This document shows, piece by piece, positions 22,345 to 56,099 of a DNA stretch of 64,000 nucleotides. The stretch is from positions 16,726,148-16,790,147 of the forward strand of contig CM061914.1 in NCBI GenBank assembly GCA_031002005.1. Reading direction: 5' to 3'. This DNA comes from Vandiemenella viatica. Its lineage: Eukaryota > Arthropoda > Insecta > Orthoptera > Morabidae. The notes beneath the pieces are model-generated. The model was not told where the DNA came from and searched no databases. It saw only the letters and a program-made list of their open reading frames with translations. Position 1 is the stretch's first letter. Each line of letters opens with the position of its first letter. The position numbers and the translations under genes were made by a program.

Positions 22345-24680
22345 AATATCATGAGCCATTTAATTCACTTCATATCTAATCGATACAGGTAAATGAGGTA
22401 TCATATTAAAGTCCCTGATCCTTGTTCTATCTCTTCTTCACAACGTAGCCAGTTACCTGCTTCATATATTCAAATTCTTGTCTTTTTCTGCTGTTATTAC
22501 CTATGACTGCTCTCTCTACTTCCAAATGATCCAAACCCGCAAACATCTACAATCCTGCCTCCACTTTCTGGAAGGCCCTTCCACAGATTTCTTCCCTCGC
22601 CCATCATTTCCAGGATATTTTCATTTCGTACTTCATATATTCATTTCGTTTTCAGCATCCTTGCACGACACCACAATTGGAATGTTTGAATTTTCTTTCT
22701 TCTGTATTTCTTAAATCAATATTTTACGAAGTTCTTTATGAGTTTAATAATTTTCTTAACTCGGATCTTTTAATCAATACCACTCTGCCTTAAGACGGTG
22801 TATTCGCAGCCTCCCGCGTAGAATGATGAATCATCATATATATTACTACTATAAGATTTTTTTTGTCACAAGCCTGTATCTTCATACTTAACCGAAACCA
22901 ATGAATGAGGTGTCATTTTAATGCTTATGGTCTCCACTTTGGTCACATCCTATTTTAAGAAAGAAAGTTTTCGGAATTCGACCCATAAAGGGCAAAAATG
23001 TCAATATGTTTAAAACGCTGTTTTCTGTGTTGAGAGTAATTTATCTCCCTGGATACCTATCTGAAATCGTTTAATGAAGCATCATTTTAAAGATCATGAT
23101 CTTCGCTTTAGTGACGTCATATACTAAGACAAAAAAATTTCGGAATACGACCCTTAAAGGGAAAAGTATCAATATTTTTGCAATGCGTTTTTCTGTCACG
23201 AGGCATTTATTTCACTTCATATCTAACCAATACTGATAAATGAGGTATCATATTAAAGACTAAGGTCTCCGCTGTGGTAGCATTATATTTTAAGAAAGCA
23301 ATTTTTCGTAATTCGATCCTTAAAGGACAAAAATGTCAAATTTTCTAAAATCCGTTTTTTGTGCCTCGAGCTATTTATGTCACTGGATATTGAACCAAAA
23401 TCGATAAATCAAATACGATTGTGAGGAGTAATTTCTCAGCTTTGGTGACATCATATTTTAAGAAAGAAGTTTTTTGGAATTCAACCCTTAAAGGGAAAAA
23501 GTATAAATTTTTATGCAACGCGTTTTTTGCGTCACGGGCCATTTCTCTCCTTTGATATCTAACCGATATAGATCAATGAGGTATCATATTAAAGACTAAG
23601 GTCTTCGCCGTGGTAACATTATATTTTAAGAAAGCAATTTTTCGTAATTCGACCCTTAAAGGGCAAAAATGTCAATATTTATAAAATCCTTTTTTTGTGT
23701 CTGGAGCCATTTATCTCCATGGATATCAAACCAAAATCGATAAATGAAGTAGGATTATGAGGAGTAATGTTTCAACTTTGTGACATCATATAATAAGAAA
23801 GAATTTTTTTTAATAATTGAACCCTTAAAGGGAACAAGTATTAATGTTTTTTCAACGCATATTTGTGTCTCGATCCATTTATCTCCATTAATATATAATC
23901 GAGATAGATAAATGAGGTATCATTCTAAAGATTAAGGTCTCCTCCACTGTGGTCACATCATGTTTTAAGAATAGAATTTTCTGAATTTAACTCTTAAAGG
24001 ATGAAAATATCAGGATTTTTAAAATGCGTTTTTGTGTCTCGAGTCATTTATCACCCTTGATAATTATACAAAATTGATAAACGAGGTATAATTTTAAAGA
24101 CTGAGGTATTCGTAAGGTCTTCGGTTGGTTACACCATATTTTAAGACATGAATTTTTCAAAATTCGACCCTTAAAGGGCTAAAATATTAATATTTCCACA
24201 ACGCATTTTTCCGTCACTAGCCATTTATCTCCATTGATATCTAGCCGAAATCAATAAACGGGGTATCGTTTAAAATATTATAGTATCCGCTGTGGACAGA
24301 TCATATTTTAAGAAAGAACTTTCTTTGAATTCAACCCTTAAGGTGCAAAAATATCATCAATTCTAAAAATCTTTTTACCTCTCTTAATGCCTATCCGAAA
24401 TCGGTAAATGAGATATCATTTTAAAGGCCAATGTGTCCGCTTTGGTCACACCATATTTTATAACAGTTTTTTTTAATTTAATTTTGACCCTTAAAAGGCA
24501 AAAGCATCAATATTATTTCTGCAACATATTTCTTTTTTTTATTATTGTTATTACGAGCCATTTATCTCCTTCGGTTCCTAATCGAAATTAGAGTTTAAGG
24601 TCTCGAGTTAGGTAAAATCATAAATTAAGAAAGAATTTTTTTGAATTGATGCTTAAAGTGGTCACATGTATCAAACAGTT
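22345..24680 (+). repeat. ~167-bp satellite array, about 11 copies
   Basis: The box ACCCTTAAAGGG (or a variant) begins at 22981, 23150, 23316, 23484, 23652, 23821, 23990, 24167, 24334, 24487 and 24649. Spacings are 153-177, mostly 166-169. Each unit also contains GATAAATGAGGTATCAT, a TTTGGTCACATCATATTTTAAG box and a CGTTTTT...GAGCCATTTATCTCC box. Units are diverged by many substitutions and small indels. One partial unit at 22345-22425 is separated from the rest by a LINE fragment. There is no coding potential. The period is close to one nucleosome core plus short linker. Confidence 0.85.
22435..22845 (-). pseudogene. LINE-R 3' fragment inside the satellite
   Basis: Base-level similarity to the 1.7-2.05 kb part of the LINE-R copy is visible in order: CTTCATATATTC, then CTCGCCCATCATTTCC, then CACCACAATTGGAATG (versus CACCACATTTCAAATG), then a TTTCTT..GTATTTC box and GAAGTTCTTT. 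It is strongly diverged and non-coding. It splits the satellite array. Confidence 0.6.
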
Positions 24681-34419: not shown

Positions 34420-35892
34420 TTAATCCAGTATAAGCGCTCCTCGCTTCCTTACTTCCAGGTCCAGGGGCCAGATACCGAGTATAACCGTTAGGGCATCTGT
34501 GGCCGTTGTTCTGTAAGCCCCAGTTAGTCGGAGCAGAATTCCTCGCTGCGTACGGCGAAGCAGCTCCTTTGGTTTGACCTTTCTTAGGTGCTTGGCCCAA
34601 GTGCTTGCAGCGTATCCAGTAATGGAGGTCAGTATTGCATCGTGATATCTTCTTATGACGAGCGGAGGCAGATTAAACCGTCGTTCGCCAATGCTTATCA
34701 ATTTGTGCATTACCAGTGCTGCTCTTACCACATACTTCCTCCATGTGAGACGCAAATTTCAGTTGTTCCTCCAGGTTTACACCAAGGTAGCGGACTACTG
34801 CTTTTTCTCTTTATTGTTTTTCCCTGGATCCTAATTACCGGATTTCGTTTGAGTGTTCCTTTTAGGAGCATGTAGGTAGTCTTTTGTGGGGCTAGGTTTA
34901 ACTTAACTGCTGCACACCACTTACTCAGGCAATCCAATACTGCTTTGCATTTTGTTTCGAGTTCCTGCCTGGTGTCCGCGTCTATCAGAAGTGCGAGATC
35001 ATCGGCGAATGCCACCACACCCAGCAGTTCTGACATTTGTTGCAATATTTCCATGACCGGTTCCAAACCAATGTCCCAGAAAATTGGTCCACACACTGAT
35101 CCCTGCGGGCAACCTTTCGTCAGTCTTTTCTCTATGTACTTGTTGGGGCACCGCAATTTGGCATATCTATTTCTACAATAATCTCTAAAACTGGTATATA
35201 GGTTTTTTGGACAGTTGATGTTTCTTAAGCGTTCGAACAGCGCGGGCCACCAGAGATTGTCGAATGCGCCAGGCGATATCTACAAATACTCCCACCACAT
35301 AATTTTTGGAAGAGTTTTGAGCTATTTCCATTAAGCGGTTGATGGCGTCCTCTGTTGACTTGCCTGCTCTGAACCCATACTGATTTGGGTTCATCCCATG
35401 TTTTAATCTGTGTTCCTTTAGTTTCTTGCAAAGTATCTTTTCTTGTACTTTCCCTAGAACATTGAGTAAGCAGATTGGACGATAGGATTTTGGGAGTTGT
35501 GGGTCTTTGCCTCCACCTTTCGCTATGATAATCACGTCACTCGTTTTCCATGCATTTGGTATTTTTCCCTGCACCAGGCATTCGTTAAAAAGTTTATTTA
35601 AGGTTGGAACCAGTTGGACGACCAGCTCCTGGAGGACCTCTGCCGGTATCCCATCAGGTCCAGGTGCTTTTCTTTTTGGAAGGGAAAATATTGCCTCTAC
35701 TATCTCTTCATCTGATATGACGCATTTTTGATGTTCACTCTCGTAGGGATCCCACATTTTTTGACGCAGTTCACTTTGCCGAACGGTCTCGTTTTCCGTA
35801 CTATCATCTGGAAGTAGCACGTCAAGTAGCTCCCGTGCAGTTTCCATCCAGTTGGTGGTCATAGATCCATCCAGTTTTCTTACTGTAGACAA
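34420..35892 (-). pseudogene. R1-clade LINE ORF2 reverse transcriptase
   Basis: Frames 35892-35185, 35156-34725 and 34755-34420 read one after the other. The first has RKAPGPDGIPAEVLQEL, SYRPICLLNVLGKV and YGFRAGKSTEDAI. The second has KGCPQGSVCGPIFWDI and the catalytic VAFADDLALLIDADT, then LAPQKTTYMLLKG. The third has RRTQRGILLRLTGAYRTTAT, a signature of the R1 clade. Shifts near 35.2 and 34.75 kb prevent a single protein. The R1 assignment rests on the GAYRTTATDAL thumb and ADDLALL context. Confidence 0.85.
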
Positions 35893-36250
35893 GGTTGTAG
35901 GTGGCCTAATTTTGCCAGCGGCAATCTTGTAAGGGGATGCCCCATGGGCCTGATCTCATATTTTGTCTGACGAAGGCTTCCCAGCTTTTTTGTTTTGTCT
36001 TCAGCAACAGATCCTTGAACTCTTGCTTTTTATTCCTATATCTATCTAGAAGAGTCTGTCTCTCTTCTGTAATGAGGCAACGTTGATATGCTTTTCTTGC
36101 CTTCCTCATTGTGATTCGTAGTTTCTGCAATCTTTCTGTCCATGGTTTGTCTTTTAATCCCGTTGTTTTCTTTAGTGGAATTGCAGTTCTCATTGCGTCC
36201 TTGGATTGCTCGAATTGTTTCTTTCCGCAGCCTTGTCCACATCAAAATCT

Positions 36251-37033
36251 TTATCTTCGACTTGGGGGAGGAATAAAGCAACTCCTCAACCTTGGCCAGT
36301 TGGCTTTGCTGATGTCATATCGCCGTTGAATATTGGTACAGGCGCCTTCGCGCGCACCGTCCCGCAGTCTTCCCAGTTCGAACATAATTAGATTGTGATC
36401 ACTGGTGGTTTGGTTCTCAATCACCTTCCACCCGCTTACTAGGTTTCCTGCTCTTCGATTTGCTAAAGTTATATCTATGTTCGATTTGGCACCTGCTCGG
36501 TCACTGAACGTGTATGGATTGTTTGGCTCGTTTTTGACATACAGCTGTAATTCTCCAATCAGCTCGAGTAACTTTTCTCCTCGTGCGTCTGTACGACCGC
36601 TGTGCCAGAGTGCAGATTTGGCATTTGCATCGGCAACTATCACCGTAGGGCTGTCGCCTATGGCTGTACATATTTCCCTAATCTTGCAAAGATAGGGATC
36701 AATATCGTCTCTGTATTGAAAGTACATGTTAACGAGGACTACGTTTCCCCATTGCGTACCTAACTCCACACACACCGTATGTTCATCGCAGAATTGTGTT
36801 ATTTTTGTGACTGTGATCTGCTTATTGAAGACTATGATGGCACTCATAGGTTTTTTCCCTGTCGAGATTATCTGAGACGTCACTGGCATGTGTGGGATTT
36901 TCCCTTCACTGGAATGGGGCTCTTGAAGACAGAGGATATCTATTTGCATTTCCTCAGCTAGTTTACTCACTTCATGCAAAACCAGACTGGTTCTCCTGCA
37001 GTTTAACTTGTGCGATCTTAATTCTCTCTGCAC
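36251..37033 (-). pseudogene. R1-clade LINE ORF2 endonuclease domain
   Basis: This 260-residue frame matches an APE-type endonuclease. Its start (NCRRTSLVLHEVSKLAEEM) leads to ILCLQEPH (catalytic glutamate), a VVLVNMYF strand, VIVADANAKSALWHSG (the A-D-x-N-A box), TFSDRAGAKSNIDITLA and TTSDHNLIMFEL (the S-D-H box). All main catalytic motifs are present. The domain nicks target DNA to start reverse transcription. The frame ends with a shift near 36,250 before the linker to the reverse transcriptase (35906-36193). Confidence 0.85.
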
Positions 37034-37784
37034 CCCTGCTCATGGATGCCGAGTATGGATATTGCACTGTGGCCACGGCTGTCTCGAGTCAAGCATTATT
37101 CTTCCATGAGTCATCACAAAATGACGATAAATTTGATCTGGATCAAAGATTTCAGTTCCGTCTGTCAAATACTTGCTTGACTATAGTGAGTAACTGGGCT
37201 GAATTAGTAGGTATATTGTTTATCTTAAGTTGAATACGATCAATTGCCTCTGGTTGCGGAAATGTGATGTTTTTGCCATTTGGATGTGCTATTCTGGTTA
37301 GGTGGCGTAACGCTATAGTGAGATTTTGTGTTTCCTCTAGTCTAGCGAGCTGCAGATTGTTTTCAAACTTTTGGTAGATATGGTCTGGAGCTATAGCAGC
37401 GTGTCTTGGTTTTTCGTTCGCTCGGTTTTCGGAGGCCGCCACTAATTTTGCAGTAGTTGGATGTCATTGGAACTGGTCCTACCCACCCAAGTCCAGCTCG
37501 TTTTGGTTGAGGTCTAGGAGAAATATCACAGATGGTAGAAGTAATCTCTGAGTGTTGGAGGATAGATTCATCTGTCTGCGTGCTTACGCTGTTTGCTGTT
37601 TCCTTCCCTTCTTGCAATATTTTCTCCCTGTATCTTGCAGCCCTCTCTGCGTTCCGCCTCTTCCTTGATGGCGTGTTTCTTGTTTTATTCCTCTTTCTTT
37701 TCCTTACTGTTTCTTCTATTAGGTTGATAATGATACTCAATAATTGATCTTTGTATGGTTTAGTCCATCCGCTTGGAGTTTCTT

Positions 37785-47050: not shown

Positions 47051-47355
47051 TGCAGAGTAATTACATCAATTAAATGCTAAATAACAGTACCAAGTATTAA
47101 AAGTAACAACTGGAAAATGTTAATAACAGTAAAACCATTTCACAAAAAATAAACTGACTGGGGTAAAACTGGGAAAGAGGAGATAAATTCTGAAAATGTA
47201 AAGCCAGTGGTAAGGGTGTTAATGGTAAACTGTAGAAGTATAATGAACAGAGTAATCGAATTTGCAAACTTAATAGAGATACACGAACCACAAGTAATAA
47301 TTGGGGTACAGAGTTGGTTAAAAGAAGAAGTACTAGACAGTGAGGTTCTTCCTGA

Positions 47356-47610
47356 CGCTGGAAGATTTCGTGGGTGTGCAGCCGGGTCAATTGATTGCAG
47401 ATGTACGAATTTTCGATGGCGTAACATGCCATCATCTTCAGGTAGCATCCACTGGTCGGCATGAAGAGCGAAGTCTGGGATGTGACTGCTGGTCTGCTCC
47501 GGGGGCGTCGATATTTATACCCTCGGACCCCGTCCCCCCCCCACTCCCGCCACTGCACTCTGATAGCAGTGGTGGGGGTAGTGCGTTGCAACGCGTCGAG
47601 CAGTGATGGT
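47356..47610 (-). mobile_element. 255-bp insert with hammerhead ribozyme (PLE-derived or retrozyme-like)
   Basis: The insert breaks the LINE-C endonuclease frame and is flanked by TTCCTGA at 47349-47355 and 47611-47617; removing it plus one repeat restores ...EVLPDGYRV. Its minus strand contains a hammerhead core (47397-47450). The rest holds GATATTTATACCC (TATA-like), a C-rich run (47,530) and an ACTGCAC...CAGTGG hairpin. There is no open protein. PLEs and small animal retrozymes carry such ribozymes in their terminal repeats; a solitary insert of this length fits either a PLE terminal repeat or a retrozyme monomer. Confidence 0.7.
47397..47450 (-). ncRNA. Hammerhead ribozyme core
   Basis: Read 5' to 3' on the minus strand: GGATGCTAC (stem I strand), CTGAAGA (matches CUGANGA), T, GATGGC-ATGTTAC-GCCATC (six-pair stem II with loop), GAAA, ATTC, then GTACATCTGC (stem I return strand: GTA pairs with TAC, ATC with GAT). 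All conserved core bases are present. Stem III is nearly absent, as reported for PLE and retrozyme hammerheads, which cleave best as dimers. Cleavage is predicted after the C of ATTC. Confidence 0.75.
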
Positions 47611-48626
47611 TTCCTGATGGTTACAGAGTGTACCATAGAGATACAGGAGCAATTGGTGGAGGAGGTTTCATACTAGTTAGCAAAAACTACCACAGTTCAC
47701 TGGCATTCATAGATCAATACCATGAGTTACTTGGGTTAGATTTCTGGGGTAATAAAAAAGAAAAAATCAGAGTGTTGGCAGTTTACTCCAGTGGAAGAAT
47801 GACAGAAGAAGATGAGGCTGTTGGGGAGAAATTAAATTCATACTCAGATTTCAGAAGTGAGAATAGAATGATCATCATTGGTTGGGATTAAAATTTACCA
47901 GGTGTAAACTGGGAAGGAAATAAGATAAATAACACAGGGGAGCAAAGATTTGCAAATATCTTAATAAGGGAAGGAGGATTTACACAAGTGGTTGAGCAAA
48001 ACACTAGGGGACACAATATTTTGGATATATTTCTGTTTAAGCCCAATGAAAACCTTGTGGGGTGTCAAGTAACTGAAAGCATAAGTGATCATGAAGCAGT
48101 TCTGATGGATATTAGAGGATTCAGTAAACCAGCAGCCAAAATTGAAGGGGGAAATAGGTACAATTATAAAAAGGCACAGGTTTCAAATTTGAAGAGAAAT
48201 TTCAGAGAACAATGGAAGGAAGGCACAAGTACAGTAGAGTCAAGGTGGGAAGAGTTCAAGGAGATAATAAGAAAGGGAGAAGAAAAATTTATTCCAAGGC
48301 AGAAAATAAAGAGAAGTAGAGAACCTATGTACTATAATAGGGAAGTGAGGAGGTTAAAGAGGTTGGTATGAAGAGAACATAACAGAGTTAAGAGACAGCT
48401 GGGTATTAGGGAATATTTAAAACAACTAAACAAGGACTTAATAACAGCAAATAAAGTGGCTAAAGATGGCATTATGAAGAGTATTGTTAGTGCAGGATGA
48501 CCATTGACTGATGCATCTAGAAATTTCTATGGTTATATCAGGAAACTGAGGGGAAGGGAGGGTGTAGAGATACTTATAGATAAGGATGGAGAAGAAGTTA
48601 CTGAAGATTTGAAAAAGGTAGAGATA

Positions 48627-51660: not shown

Positions 51661-51780
51661 GGGGGGGGGGGTTGGAAGGTGGGGGTTGGAAGGTGGGGGT
51701 TTCACTGCGTTTTTATTTATATGTATTAAACATTAGGATAGGATAAAAACCACCACTTACCATACACAAACACACATAGA

Positions 51781-51820
51781 ATCTAATTTTCGAGCCCCCT
51801 GGCTCTTCATCAGTAGGAAT
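51781..51820 (-). ncRNA. Hammerhead ribozyme core of the PLE
   Basis: The minus strand reads CATTCCTA, CTGATGA (51813-51807), A, GAGCC-AGGGG-GCTC hairpin (five-pair stem II), GAAA (51791-51788), ATTAG. The two invariant boxes are intact. The return strand of stem I is less clear than in the 47.4-kb copy, so activity is doubtful. Its position after the GIY-YIG domain is the one known for PLE ribozymes. Confidence 0.6.
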
Positions 51821-51880
51821 GAAAAGGCTGCACGCTGGTGGCTGGCAGCCAACTGCATAAGCTACAATGCCGGTAGCTCA

Positions 51881-51898
51881 TGGGGGGGGGGGGGGGGG
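51881..51898 (+). repeat. G18 run
   Basis: A pure G tract within the PLE 3' region; a C tract on the coding strand. Similar G/C runs occur at 51,661 and in the PLE at 61,115. Confidence 0.85.
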
Positions 51899-52287
51899 AA
51901 AAACAACATCGCAGGAATTGAGGGTGGGGGTAGAAAAGGATAGGCTGGAAAATGATAATGAATAGTAAGTGAAGCTGTACATAGGGACTCGTCACGTAAG
52001 TGCAGTAGATCTCAGTTAATGGCCCTAAATTCCTATTAAGTAATGGACATCTGCAAACAGCTGAAAATAAAATATTCAGAAATTTGAAATTAAAAATAAG
52101 CAAAATTCAAAGTTACAATCTATAAAGATAGGTACTGGTAACCGGTGGTTCTATGGGAGAAGGTGGAGGTGAGGGGGATGGGTGGGAGGAAAATTGGTGC
52201 TATCTTAAATTTAGACCTGGTGATTGTCTGGTACCCAGTTGGTACTGATAAGTCAGTTCCCACCTTCTAAGTTCCGAAATACTGCTT

Positions 52288-53190
52288 CTATCTGAGAGGA
52301 CTCTGATGGCGTGGACATGTGTTAAAAATAATGTTGGTATCATGTGTGGTGGCATGATAAGATACAGAGTGGTCAGGGTTCTGGGTGTGTACCAATTGTC
52401 TGTGTCCATTCATTCTGATGGCCAGTGAATTTGTTGTGAGTCCAGTGTAGGAGGCTGGGCAATGGTTACAAGTGAGTTGGTATGTAAGGTGGGAGGATAC
52501 ACAAGTTGTAAGTACTGTGATGGGAAAGCTTTCCCCAGTTATGGGGTTGGTAAAGGTGGTGGAAGGCGGGTGCATACTGCATAATTTGCAATGGGATCTG
52601 TTGCAAGTAAATGAACCTTGGGGCTGTCTTGCAGGCTGTGCGGCTCCGTATTTATGGACCAAGAATTGGTTGAGGTTTGGAGCTCTGCTGAAGCAGGTTC
52701 TGGGTGGGTGTGGGAGGATTTTAGAAAGGAGGTTTCTCATCTCAGGGCAGGCTCGAAGGAAGTCGTAACCTTGTCTCAAGTCTCGGTTGACGGATTCCAA
52801 GCCTGGGATGTAACGGGCGATCAAAACACAGCTTCGGTGGGTTTTAAAGGGTTTTGGATTATTGATAGGTTGAGTGGGTTGTGATGTGGCACGTGAAACC
52901 TGTTTGTGAACTAAATCTGGTGAGTAATTGAGGGAAATAAGAGCTTCAGAGATATTGCTGGCATATTGTTGAAGGGCCTGTTGATTGGAACAAATCTGAC
53001 TACCCCAAATACCTAGGCTGCAGGGGAGGGAGCGTTTGATGTGATGAGGGTGGCAGCTATCATAATGAAGGTACTGTTGTAGGTTGGTGGGTTTGATATG
53101 GACAGCTGTGTGGATGTAGCTATTTGTGAGGGAAAGGTCAACATCCAGGAAAGTGGCCTGTGTATGGGAGTAAGTCCATGTGAATTTCAA
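52288..53190 (-). pseudogene. PLE C-terminal part with GIY-YIG endonuclease
   Basis: A fully open 300-residue frame. The start (ATFLDVDLSLTNSYIHTAVH, KPTNLQQYLHYDSCHPHHIK) is the end of the reverse transcriptase. Residues 170-235 contain a CNRSHCKLC cysteine cluster, the CCHH-type element preceding the nuclease. Residues 245-272 (LTYQLTCNHCPASYTGLTTN then IRMNGH) are the GIY-YIG nuclease in its PLE form. This domain is thought to cut target DNA. No stop lies inside, so this is the best-preserved PLE stretch here. Confidence 0.85.
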
Positions 53191-53735
53191 GGAGCTGACG
53201 GTGTTAAGTTTATTGAGAAAACTGAGTAGGTTGTCTTCCCGGTGGGTCCAAATTATGAAAATATCATCAATGAATCTGACACATAAGAGGTGTTTCAGAT
53301 GGGCTTCAGCTATGAATGATTGTTCTAGGCGGCCTAGGTAGGGGTTAGCTTATGAGGGCGCCATTGAGAGCCCATGGCAGTGCCGCTAACTTGGTGATAA
53401 ATTATCCCATCAAATGAGAAAAAGTTGTTATTAAGTATTAGTTCGGCCAGGGTGATCAGGAAAGATCTGGTTGGAATTCTATTGGGTGGATGCTGGTGTA
53501 GGAAGTGTTCCATGGCACTGAGCCCATGGCAGTGGGGAATATTTGTTTACAAGGAGGTCACATCAACCGTCACTAGGAAGGAGTGAGGGGGAAGAGGTGT
53601 GGGTACTGTAGCCAGTCGAGAGAGGAAGTGTCTGATGTCTGGGGAGGGAAGCTGGCCGACAATGGGCTGTAGATGCTGGTCAACCAGGGCAGAGATACGC
53701 TCAGTGGGTGAGCCATATGCAGCAACTATGGACAC
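53190..53735 (-). pseudogene. PLE reverse-transcriptase core
   Basis: Reading on from the previous frame: IVAAYGSPTERISALVDQHL, LVTVDVTSL (first catalytic D), a TAA, TNIPH, then FFSFDGIIYHQVSGTAMGSQ. A one-base loss moves the reading to VRFIDDIFIIWTHREDNLLS, with the catalytic I-D-D near 53,260, followed by LKFTWTYS. The core motifs are all visible but split by two stops and a shift. Confidence 0.8.
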
Positions 53736-54409
53736 CCTGGGTTGCCAGGCTTATGAATTTTAGGAAGCAGGTATAGTGAAGGTGTGCGTGGCTTTTTTGG
53801 AGTGAGGAGTGAGACAGAATGGGGAGTGAGTCCTTGGAGAGGTCCACTAACCTGTATATAATCTTGTATTCTATAACTCACAGCAGGTGTGGGATCATGG
53901 TTGTGGCGGCAGTAAGTGTCGGCGTCCGACAGCTGATGCAGTGCTTCACTGACATAATCACACCGGTTCATGACCACCATCGTGGATCCCTTGTCTGCTG
54001 GTAGAATGATCAAATCTGGATCAGAGGAGAGTTCCCTGATGGCCCGGGTTTCTGAACGAGTCAGGTGGGTGCCACTGGGTAGTGATTTTACGAAACTAGC
54101 AGAAATCAAACTGGTGGAAACTAGATCTTGAAACAATTGGAGAAGGTGGTTTTGTGGGAGAGGTGGTATATCAAGAATGGAGGGTGGTTGGAACCTTTGG
54201 AGACTGGGCTCCAGGTCATTCTGAGTGTCCATATTGTTGTTCTTTGAAGCAAAGTGATACCTCCAGCGGAGTGTGCAGCAGAAAACTAAGGAGTCATGTA
54301 CTAGGTTGGTCTGATCAAATTTGGGAGTGGGCGACAAGATGAGACCCTTGGAGAGTCTTTTGTTATTATTGGTCATACCACTTGCATGACTACACACCTC
54401 ATTTACCAA
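53726..54409 (-). pseudogene. PLE protein, N-terminal part
   Basis: This 227-codon frame includes KRLSKGLILSPTPKFDQ, LRWRYHFASKN, TRSETRAIRELSSDPDLIIL and PADKGSTMVVMNRCDYV, then TPSLYLLPKIHKPG. The ADKG and LPKIHKPG motifs are diagnostic of Penelope-like reverse transcriptases. The frame is lost by one base after NPG, where the following codons read on in the next frame as IVAAYGSPTERISAL. Confidence 0.85.
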
Positions 54410-54768: not shown

Positions 54769-56099
54769 CGAGGTGTGTACAAAAAGAAACCGAACTTGTG
54801 CTGTAATTGCTTTATTGCTCATCGTACTAACTTTTACACACTGTCCCCTTCAAATTACTGTCCTTCACTATCAATACACTGTTGCCATTGTTTTTTCAAG
54901 TTTTGGAACGCCTCCTGGAATGCAATTTCTCTGATGACGCGCAGTTCTCTAGTCGCATTGTCTTGAATTTCTTCTATGGTCTGGAAACGACGTCCTTTCA
55001 AAGTGTTTTTCAGTTTTGGGAAGAGAAAAAAGTCTGCCGGAACCAAGTCTGGAGAATATGGTGACTGAAGCACAACGGGAGTGCGATGTTTTGCCAGATA
55101 ATTCGTGACAAACAACGATGCGTGAGTGGGTGCCTTGTCATGGTGCAACATCCACGACTGATTCTCCCACAGTTCAGGCCTTTTCCTACGCACAGCATCT
55201 CTCAATCGTGTCAGAATTTTCTGGTAGACTTCCTTGTTTACCACTTGACCACGTGGTACAAATTCATGGTGCACAGCTCCTTTACAATCAAAAAATACGA
55301 CCATCATCACCTTGATGTTCGACCGACTCATCCGTGCTTTCTTTGGTCGAGGAGATCCTTTCCCCACCCATTCTGAAGACTGCCTCTTCATTTCCACATC
55401 GTACCCATAAACCCATGTTTCATCGCCTGTAATGATGTTCTTGAGGAAGTTTTCGTCCTCATTTGCTTTTTCAAGCAACTCCTTAGAGATCCTAGCTCGA
55501 TTCTCCTTCTGCTCGTCCATCAACAAGCGCGGCACCAGTTTTGCACTGACACAATGCATTCCAAGTTTTTCTATCAGGATGTGATTGCAAGAGCCTACAC
55601 TTATGCCAACTTCTGCAGCAACCTCATGGACAGTCAAAAGGCGATTTTCACGAATCACAGTGTGAACCCTCTCAACATCGTGGTCGTCTGTTGATGTGGA
55701 GGGTCGGCCAGATTTTGGATCATCGGTAACCGAACTCCTGCCCTCCTTAAAGCGCTTAAACCATTCATAGCACTGTGTTTGGCTCATGCAGTCATCCCCA
55801 TATGCTTGTTTATGCATTTGAAGTGTATCAGTAAAAGTTTTCCCAAGTTTAACACAAAATTTCACAGACACGTTGCTCCTCCAATTTCTTCATTCTCGCT
55901 TTCTCACAAAATCGACGAGCACTCTGCGCACTACCTCACACAACCGGCTGTCACTCGTAAACTAATGGAGCGACTGTAGTGCGACAAGAGGCAATCTCTT
56001 GCCGAGAGATGTCACTAGTGTGCATGGAAGTCAGACAATTTTATCTGCAGCCGTTGGCGCACTATTTAATTAGTTCGGTTTCTTTTTGTACACACCTCG
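54769..56099 (-). mobile_element. Mariner transposon, 1,331 bp, perfect 28-bp inverted repeats
   Basis: The element starts CGAGGTGTGTACAAAAAGAA and continues CCGAACT; the right end is the exact reverse complement over 28 bases. TA lies on both sides (54767-54768, 56100-56101). One transposase frame fills most of the interior. Perfect repeats and an almost undamaged gene mark a recent insertion. Confidence 0.95.
54855..55871 (-). pseudogene. Mariner transposase (D34D), N-terminal frame damage
   Basis: The frame is 338 residues long and carries the catalytic triad D150 (ITGDETWVYGYD), D245 (HHDKAPTH) and D280 (YSPDLVPADFFLFPKLK); 34 residues separate the last two, the mariner signature. An HTH pair covers about residues 1-110 (CYEWFKRFKEGR is the family box; SAKLVPRLL links to the catalytic core). 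The enzyme cuts at the inverted repeats and inserts at TA. No ATG starts this frame: the nearest in-frame upstream codon is TGA. An ATG at about 55,906 opens KKLEEQRVC in another frame and reaches this one only if a small GT-repeat change near 55,873 is allowed for. So this copy is probably inactive despite an intact core. Confidence 0.9.

What the first reader, a model, noticed from the sequence alone, without database searches (positions are those of the whole stretch)
47356..47610. 255-bp ribozyme insert: possible retrozyme or PLE terminal repeat in mid-jump
A short non-coding insert with TTCCTGA duplications sits in a LINE-C gene and carries a hammerhead with all core bases, a six-pair stem II, a bulged stem I and almost no stem III. 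Small animal retrozymes and PLE terminal repeats have this ribozyme type. A solitary, precisely bordered monomer is worth testing as a mobile circular-RNA unit.
Basis: partly seen in the sequence, partly recalled or inferred. Interest (0 to 1): 0.8.

Follow-up and report, generated by a model that had tools for sequence, protein, structure and literature searches.

The report
Truncated end of a Penelope-like retrotransposon
The 255-base insert is the broken-off end of a common jumping gene (a Penelope-like element) rather than a free-living ribozyme circle, but sister copies of it in the same genome show an unexpectedly strict pattern that hints at how this element writes itself into both strands of DNA.

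Summary
The insert is real: TTCCTGA repeats flank it, the flanks read on in one frame without insert and one repeat, and a hammerhead-like core lies on the minus strand (0 of 150 random windows have such a pattern). It is not an independent unit. Of 75 distinct loci read, 49 continue upstream of the window copy's start and 31 into the coding part of a Penelope-like element (PLE). It is that element's 3' terminus: pseudo-LTR with TATA box, hammerhead overlapping the ORF start, and a 3' end at the nearer of two fixed points. No tandem array appears in the stretches read. "Retrozyme" is not supported; "PLE terminal repeat" is.

Extension: 40 of the 75 loci are head-to-head double insertions with both outer ends at those two points. 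In 40 of 40 one end carries the 33-nt "tail" and the other does not, and 7-16 bp duplications bracket both ends. Arms of a pair share derived variants four times more often than random pairs (32 pairs). This fits one RNA whose two start sites each prime one target strand. Head-to-head structures and one-sided tails were described before; the strictness seems new. Sixteen further loci have an unclassed end, and a second PLE family may differ.

The parts
47349..47355 (.). target-site duplication, left copy (TTCCTGA)
47611..47617 (.). target-site duplication, right copy (TTCCTGA)
47357..47606 (-). 3' terminus of a PLE copy: 3' part of the pseudo-LTR plus the first codons of the ORF; 5'-truncated, no tail
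   Evidence: 42 of 50 other matches cover this span within a few bases at 87-93% identity
47607..47610 (-). 4-nt filler (ACCA on the minus strand) at the 5' junction, not family sequence
47356..47356 (-). one extra base between the 3' end point and the duplication
47512..47519 (-). TATAAATA, possible promoter box of the pseudo-LTR (inferred)
   Evidence: also in both pseudo-LTRs of L032
47397..47452 (-). minimal type I hammerhead-like motif; predicted cut between 47407 and 47406
   Evidence: activity not tested
47357..47435 (-). start of the PLE ORF (MMACYAIENSYICNQLTRLHTHEIFQ..), overlapping stem II
   Evidence: the frame is seen in other copies and goes on past the tail in L032
47201..47355 (+). 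host repeat, left flank, open frame, LINE endonuclease-like by eye only
   Evidence: no Pfam match
47618..47888 (+). host repeat, right flank, same frame once insert and one repeat are left out
   Evidence: no Pfam match

Best explanation
The insert is a 5'-truncated, dead-on-arrival copy of an endonuclease-type Penelope-like element inserted into an older LINE-like repeat. Inferred mechanism: the PLE enzyme cut the target, and the exposed 3' end primed reverse transcription inside the PLE RNA at the nearer of two fixed start points (76 nt into the ORF, counted from the second ATG). Copying ran back through the ORF start and hammerhead into the pseudo-LTR, stopped after 250 nt, and the loose end was joined to the target with a 4-nt filler, leaving a 7-bp duplication. 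The hammerhead is carried along as part of the terminus; it is not evidence of a circular RNA unit. Shown here: membership in the family, two fixed 3' end points, variable 5' ends, duplications, coding sequence upstream. Inferred: priming chemistry, promoter and ribozyme activity.
For: 42 of the 50 other scored matches of the genome search cover 47357-47606 within a few bases; 8 are partial. Of the first 30 loci, 30 end at CTTCCAG(C) within a base or run on into the tail, and 26 start upstream of the window copy's start. Coding sequence with RT motifs lies upstream in L016 and L029 (RVT_1 E 1.4e-11 in L032, the same place as L029). L032 holds pseudo-LTR, broken ORF and pseudo-LTR, and the frame that opens at the hammerhead in other copies goes on there past the tail. 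49 of 75 distinct loci reach upstream of the truncation point and 31 of 75 into the coding part. Architecture matches the Anolis PLE PAc: ORF starting at stem II, hammerhead cut 26 nt after the start codon (26 here from the second ATG, 29 from the first), two internal RT start sites separated by the tail (PMC11167929, parts 1-2 of 4 and passages).
Against: GIY-YIG was not matched by Pfam; it is read by eye (YHIPCECGKAYVGQT..). The window copy's duplication (7 bp) is at the short end of the range. L032's ORF has a frame break just before the tail and others later. No RNA data.
Confidence: 0.95

Rival explanations
1. It is a solitary monomer of an animal retrozyme, a non-autonomous unit that moves as a small circular RNA cut by its own hammerhead.
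For: Size within 170-400 nt, type I hammerhead, duplication longer than 4 bp (features from PMC7229834, parts 1-2 of 6).
Against: No tandem array in the stretches read at 75 distinct loci; of 3 same-orientation neighbour pairs, one is the two pseudo-LTRs of a full PLE (L032), one a deleted copy (L091) and one a short partial repeat (L080). The unit is part of a PLE ORF and pseudo-LTR. It carries a TATA box, whereas a review says metazoan retrozymes seem to lack promoters (PMC7761336, passages). Its borders are not at the ribozyme cut.
Confidence: 0.02
2. It is a fixed non-autonomous short element (SINE-like) derived from the PLE end and mobilised in trans, not a random truncation.
For: The 3' end is fixed and first-look candidates are many (1370-2040 per search, 40 scored each).
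Against: 5' ends are spread over the whole element. Taking each locus by its longest arm, only L001 and L025 start within 8 nt of the window copy's start. Counting every arm, L017, L025, L043, L006 and L070 also have an arm starting there, all within head-to-head pairs; by eye this is no denser than the neighbouring 100 nt.
Confidence: 0.03
3. For the head-to-head sister copies only: they arise by self-priming (snap-back) of one cDNA, as proposed for bdelloid PLEs, not by priming on both target strands.
For: Proposed in PMC3846280 (passages). Shared derived variants between arms would also follow. Of 56 loci with an inverted neighbour, 16 have an outer end at neither fixed point; some of these could be snap-backs.
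Against: 40 of the 56 have both outer ends at one of the two fixed points, whereas snap-back predicts only one such end; duplications of 7-16 bp bracket both ends of these 40.
Confidence: 0.1

Closest known systems
PAc / Poseidon of Anolis carolinensis (Penelope/Poseidon PLE; PMC11167929, parts 1-2 of 4 and passages)
   Same: pseudo-LTR, hammerhead overlapping the ORF start with the cut 26 nt after a start codon, two internal RT start sites separated by a tail, both target strands cut and extended in vitro
   Different: different sequence; [quoted passage not shown] ribozyme activity untested here
Penelope elements of Adineta vaga (PMC3846280, passages)
   Same: pLTR containing the first codons of the ORF, TATA box, 31-bp tail optionally on one of the inverted pLTRs, head-to-head inverted pLTR, TSDs of 8-10 bp
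   Different: described copy by copy and explained by self-priming; the word hammerhead does not occur in that text
Animal non-LTR retrozymes (PMC7229834, parts 1-2 of 6)
   Same: small size, type I hammerhead
   Different: retrozymes are tandem repeats without a PLE ORF; this unit is not tandem in the stretches read

Membership tests
Penelope-like element with endonuclease | RT ORF bounded by the repeat | tested here: met
   L032: pseudo-LTR, ORF, pseudo-LTR; RVT_1 1.4e-11; frames interrupted
Penelope-like element with endonuclease | GIY-YIG domain | tested here: inconclusive
   motif by eye in L007 and L032; no Pfam match in L032
Penelope-like element with endonuclease | optional 30-40 bp tail at the 3' end | tested here: met
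   two 3' ends 32-33 nt apart
Penelope-like element with endonuclease | 5' truncation, inverted pLTR arrangement and TSD | tested here: met
Penelope-like element with endonuclease | minimal type I hammerhead in the pLTR | tested here: inconclusive
   core, stem II and position met; Rfam no match; 0 of 26 predicted pairs with compensatory change in 29 copies; cleavage untested
Animal retrozyme | tandem ~150-450 bp monomers | tested here: not met
   no array in the stretches read at 75 distinct loci
Animal retrozyme | abundant linear and circular RNA | not testable with these tools
   no RNA data
Animal retrozyme | non-autonomous unit separate from a coding element | tested here: not met
   unit overlaps the first codons of a PLE ORF and continues into its coding part upstream

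The most novel reading that the evidence does not exclude
In this PLE family integration is two-sided and asymmetric: a single RNA molecule with two RT start sites serves both cut target strands, each site used once, so every double insertion has one tailed and one tailless end; the two cDNAs grow towards each other and join head to head. Single-sided copies such as the one in the window are cases where only one cDNA survived.
Probability: 0.4. Interest if true: 0.72.

Novelty: new member of a known kind. Interest (0 to 1): 0.45.

Why it matters
The insert itself is ordinary. Its sister copies bear on an open question: how PLEs replicate. One paper proposes self-priming and asks for further tests (PMC3846280, passages); another finds two start sites and two-strand extension in vitro but leaves the later steps open (PMC11167929, parts 1-2 and passages). 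A strict one-tail-per-insertion pattern with shared source variants in both arms favours one RNA priming two strands, and a barcoded-RNA assay could settle it.

Tried and rejected
Retrozyme and SINE-like unit: see rivals. Rfam hammerhead models: no match (second motif). Covariation of the hammerhead inside the family: copies too alike, 0 of 26 pairs with compensatory change. Ribozyme cut as the end of tailed arms: after subtracting junction overlap, 5 of 33 tailed arms end within 3 nt of the predicted cut in the first two samples (4 without that subtraction). In the third sample, whose query was the stretch just 3' of the cut, only 1 of 20 loci (L073, a single arm) ended there. Not confirmed; RT stalling on structure is as good. 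'Tailless arms are always long': 13 tailed against 0 tailless short arms in 33, but the third sample gave tailless arms of 71-84 nt in 5 of 7 composites, so largely a sampling effect; dropped. A simple identity test for shared source was weak (P 0.03, 19 composites); the shared-derived-variant test was strong, though gene conversion between inverted arms would also give this. Second PLE family: two inverted pairs read; L092 appears by eye to have both outer ends at about the same place, L093's ends differ by roughly 18 nt; too few, and L092 counts against a general rule. Phage collection: no match. Genome-contig scan with the second PLE's protein: 30 pattern matches, no relative.

Full report
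OBSERVATION. The insert 47356-47610 is bracketed by TTCCTGA. In a script that leaves out the insert and one repeat, the flanks read on in one frame..WLKEEVLDSEVLPDGYRVYHRDTG... This resembles a LINE endonuclease to the eye, from recall, but Pfam matched neither flank piece. On the minus strand lies CTGAAGA-T-GATGGC-ATGTTAC-GCCATC-GAAA-ATTC|GTACATCTGC, preceded by GTGGATGCTAC, which pairs with the last stretch around a one-base bulge. With a stem II of at least five pairs and a short loop, this core and 51813-51788 are the only two in the window, and 0 of 150 random sequences have one. Rfam finds no hammerhead, and the predicted lowest-energy fold is not the textbook one. In 28 other sequences of the family the stem I base pair that the window copy forms as U-A is mostly a C-A mismatch.

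WHAT IT IS. A search of the window's own 3.72-Gb genome with the insert gave 51 matches; 40 of 2040 first-look candidates were scored. Apart from the window itself, 42 of 50 cover 47357-47606 within a few bases at 87-93% identity, and 8 are partial. Flanks of the first 30 loci show that all 30 end at CTTCCAG(C), within a base, or run on into a 33-nt tail, and that 26 of 30 start upstream of the window copy's start. Upstream lies coding sequence with RT motifs (L016, L029) and a GIY-YIG-like motif by eye (L007). L032, the same place as L029, holds a complete though frame-broken copy: a truncated inverted unit, pseudo-LTR with hammerhead, ORF, second pseudo-LTR with hammerhead, tail. The frame that opens at the hammerhead in other copies (MMACYAIENSYICDQLTRLHAREIFQQQFRRENLRSHI) goes on there past the tail, with a break before it. 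RVT_1 matches at 1.4e-11. Of 75 distinct loci read in the end, 49 extend upstream of the window copy's start and 31 reach the coding part. No tandem array of the unit was seen in these stretches of 0.4-10 kb. The window copy is therefore a 5'-truncated PLE end.

COMPARISON. In the Anolis element PAc the ORF begins at stem II, the hammerhead cut is 26 nt after the start codon, and reverse transcription starts at two adjacent internal sites whose spacing is the tail (PMC11167929). Here the predicted cut is 26 nt after the second ATG (29 after the first), and the two 3' ends lie 76 and about 109 nt into the ORF, counted from the second ATG. Bdelloid Penelope elements have pLTRs that include the first codons, a TATA box, an optional tail on one of the inverted pLTRs, and TSDs (PMC3846280). 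Animal retrozymes are described as tandem monomers (PMC7229834), which are absent here.

SISTER COPIES. Mapping loci against the natural copy in L032 showed that many carry a second, inverted arm. A scripted classification of 57 distinct loci gave 33 with an inverted arm and both outer ends at one of the two fixed points, 11 with an inverted match but one outer end at neither, and 13 single. All 33 have one tailless end (N) and one tailed end (T): 16 N/T, 17 T/N, 0 T/T, 0 N/N. For L032 the scripted coordinates were wrong, because the script met the 5' pseudo-LTR; read by hand its ends are N and T with the 12-bp duplication AGAAGCGGATAT. For L043 the long arm's 5' limit was taken. L003 and L042 rest on tailed arms of 15 and 18 nt. 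A third sample, drawn with a query at the tailed end, added 20 loci (18 distinct): 7 more composites, all one T and one N; 5 with an end at neither point; 8 single rows, three of which are one locus repeated. Total: 40 of 40 classed composites mixed, among 75 distinct loci (40 mixed, 16 with an unclassed end, 19 single). If the two ends were independent, at most half would be mixed. The 16 include chance matches of 11-15 nt (L055, L063, L078, L082), a locus cut at its edge (L061), an arm in pieces whose outer piece is N (L058), and others whose outer end is simply elsewhere; these do not follow the simple picture.

DUPLICATIONS. 32 of 33 composites have an exact duplication of 7-16 bp at the two outer ends; the exception is L032 with its wrong coordinates (12 bp by hand). 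In 660 mismatched flank pairs, 11 reached 7 bp or more and 1 reached 8 bp. The seven later composites have 12-14 bp. So each pair of arms looks like one event. No similarity between the 60-bp flanks of different composites was reported among the 33; the seven later ones were not compared this way, and one of them (L075) has a probable second copy 55 kb away that I did not fetch. Of the 13 single loci, four have a duplication right at the junction: L001 7 bp, L037 8 bp, L034 12 bp, L049 (also held as L030) 15 bp; L056 has a 7-bp match slightly off the end; the other eight show none there. L090 has 10 bp.

SOURCE OF THE ARMS. Over the 32 of 40 composites with at least 40 sites covered by both arms (4916 sites; L032 and L043 left out beforehand), the arms share 26 derived variants. 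The rate between arms of different composites predicts 6, and none of 3000 random pairings reached the observed rate. The arms therefore tend to come from one source, either one RNA molecule or RNAs of one element; later gene conversion could contribute.

MODEL. Shown: in the classed composites both outer ends are fixed points, one of each kind, within one duplication. Inferred: the enzyme cuts both strands about 12 bp apart, both 3' ends prime on one RNA at its two sites, and the cDNAs meet and join, often with a few shared bases at the junction (overlaps). The window copy is single-sided with a tailless end.

LIMITS. A second PLE family in the window was probed only lightly, and L092 looks symmetric. 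Whether the one-tail rule is already in print was looked for only in the open library; older Penelope papers were not sought by id, and the two hammerhead-PLE papers asked for are not held.

Noticed in passing
window 51716-54400, minus strand: A second, different PLE (RT FIDDIFIIW and cysteine-rich GIY-YIG-like end by eye, frames broken) with its own hammerhead-like core at 51813-51788 that also has one extra base before stem II; 73 matches from 40 scored of 2547 first-look candidates, mostly without a close inverted partner.
   Followed up: partly
window 54855-55889, minus strand: Mariner-like transposase ORF (Transposase_1 E 3.3e-15, HTH_48).
   Followed up: no
window 34725-37039, minus strand: LINE-like ORFs with endonuclease and reverse transcriptase matches.
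   Followed up: no
window 22904-24356: Tandem array with 168/336-bp period, satellite-like.
   Followed up: no
window 47543-47579: Near-perfect inverted repeat in the pseudo-LTR upstream of the TATA box (ACTCCCGCCACTGC..GCAGTGGTGGGGGT on the plus strand).
   Followed up: no
L004 and L005 (C7, about 60 kb apart): The left flank of one copy is the reverse complement of the right flank of the other, as if a 60-kb inversion had broken between two PLE arms.
   Followed up: no
L006 and L011 (C6, about 211 kb apart): The two 3.2-kb loci are about 98% identical over their whole length: a segmental duplication or an assembly duplicate.
   Followed up: no
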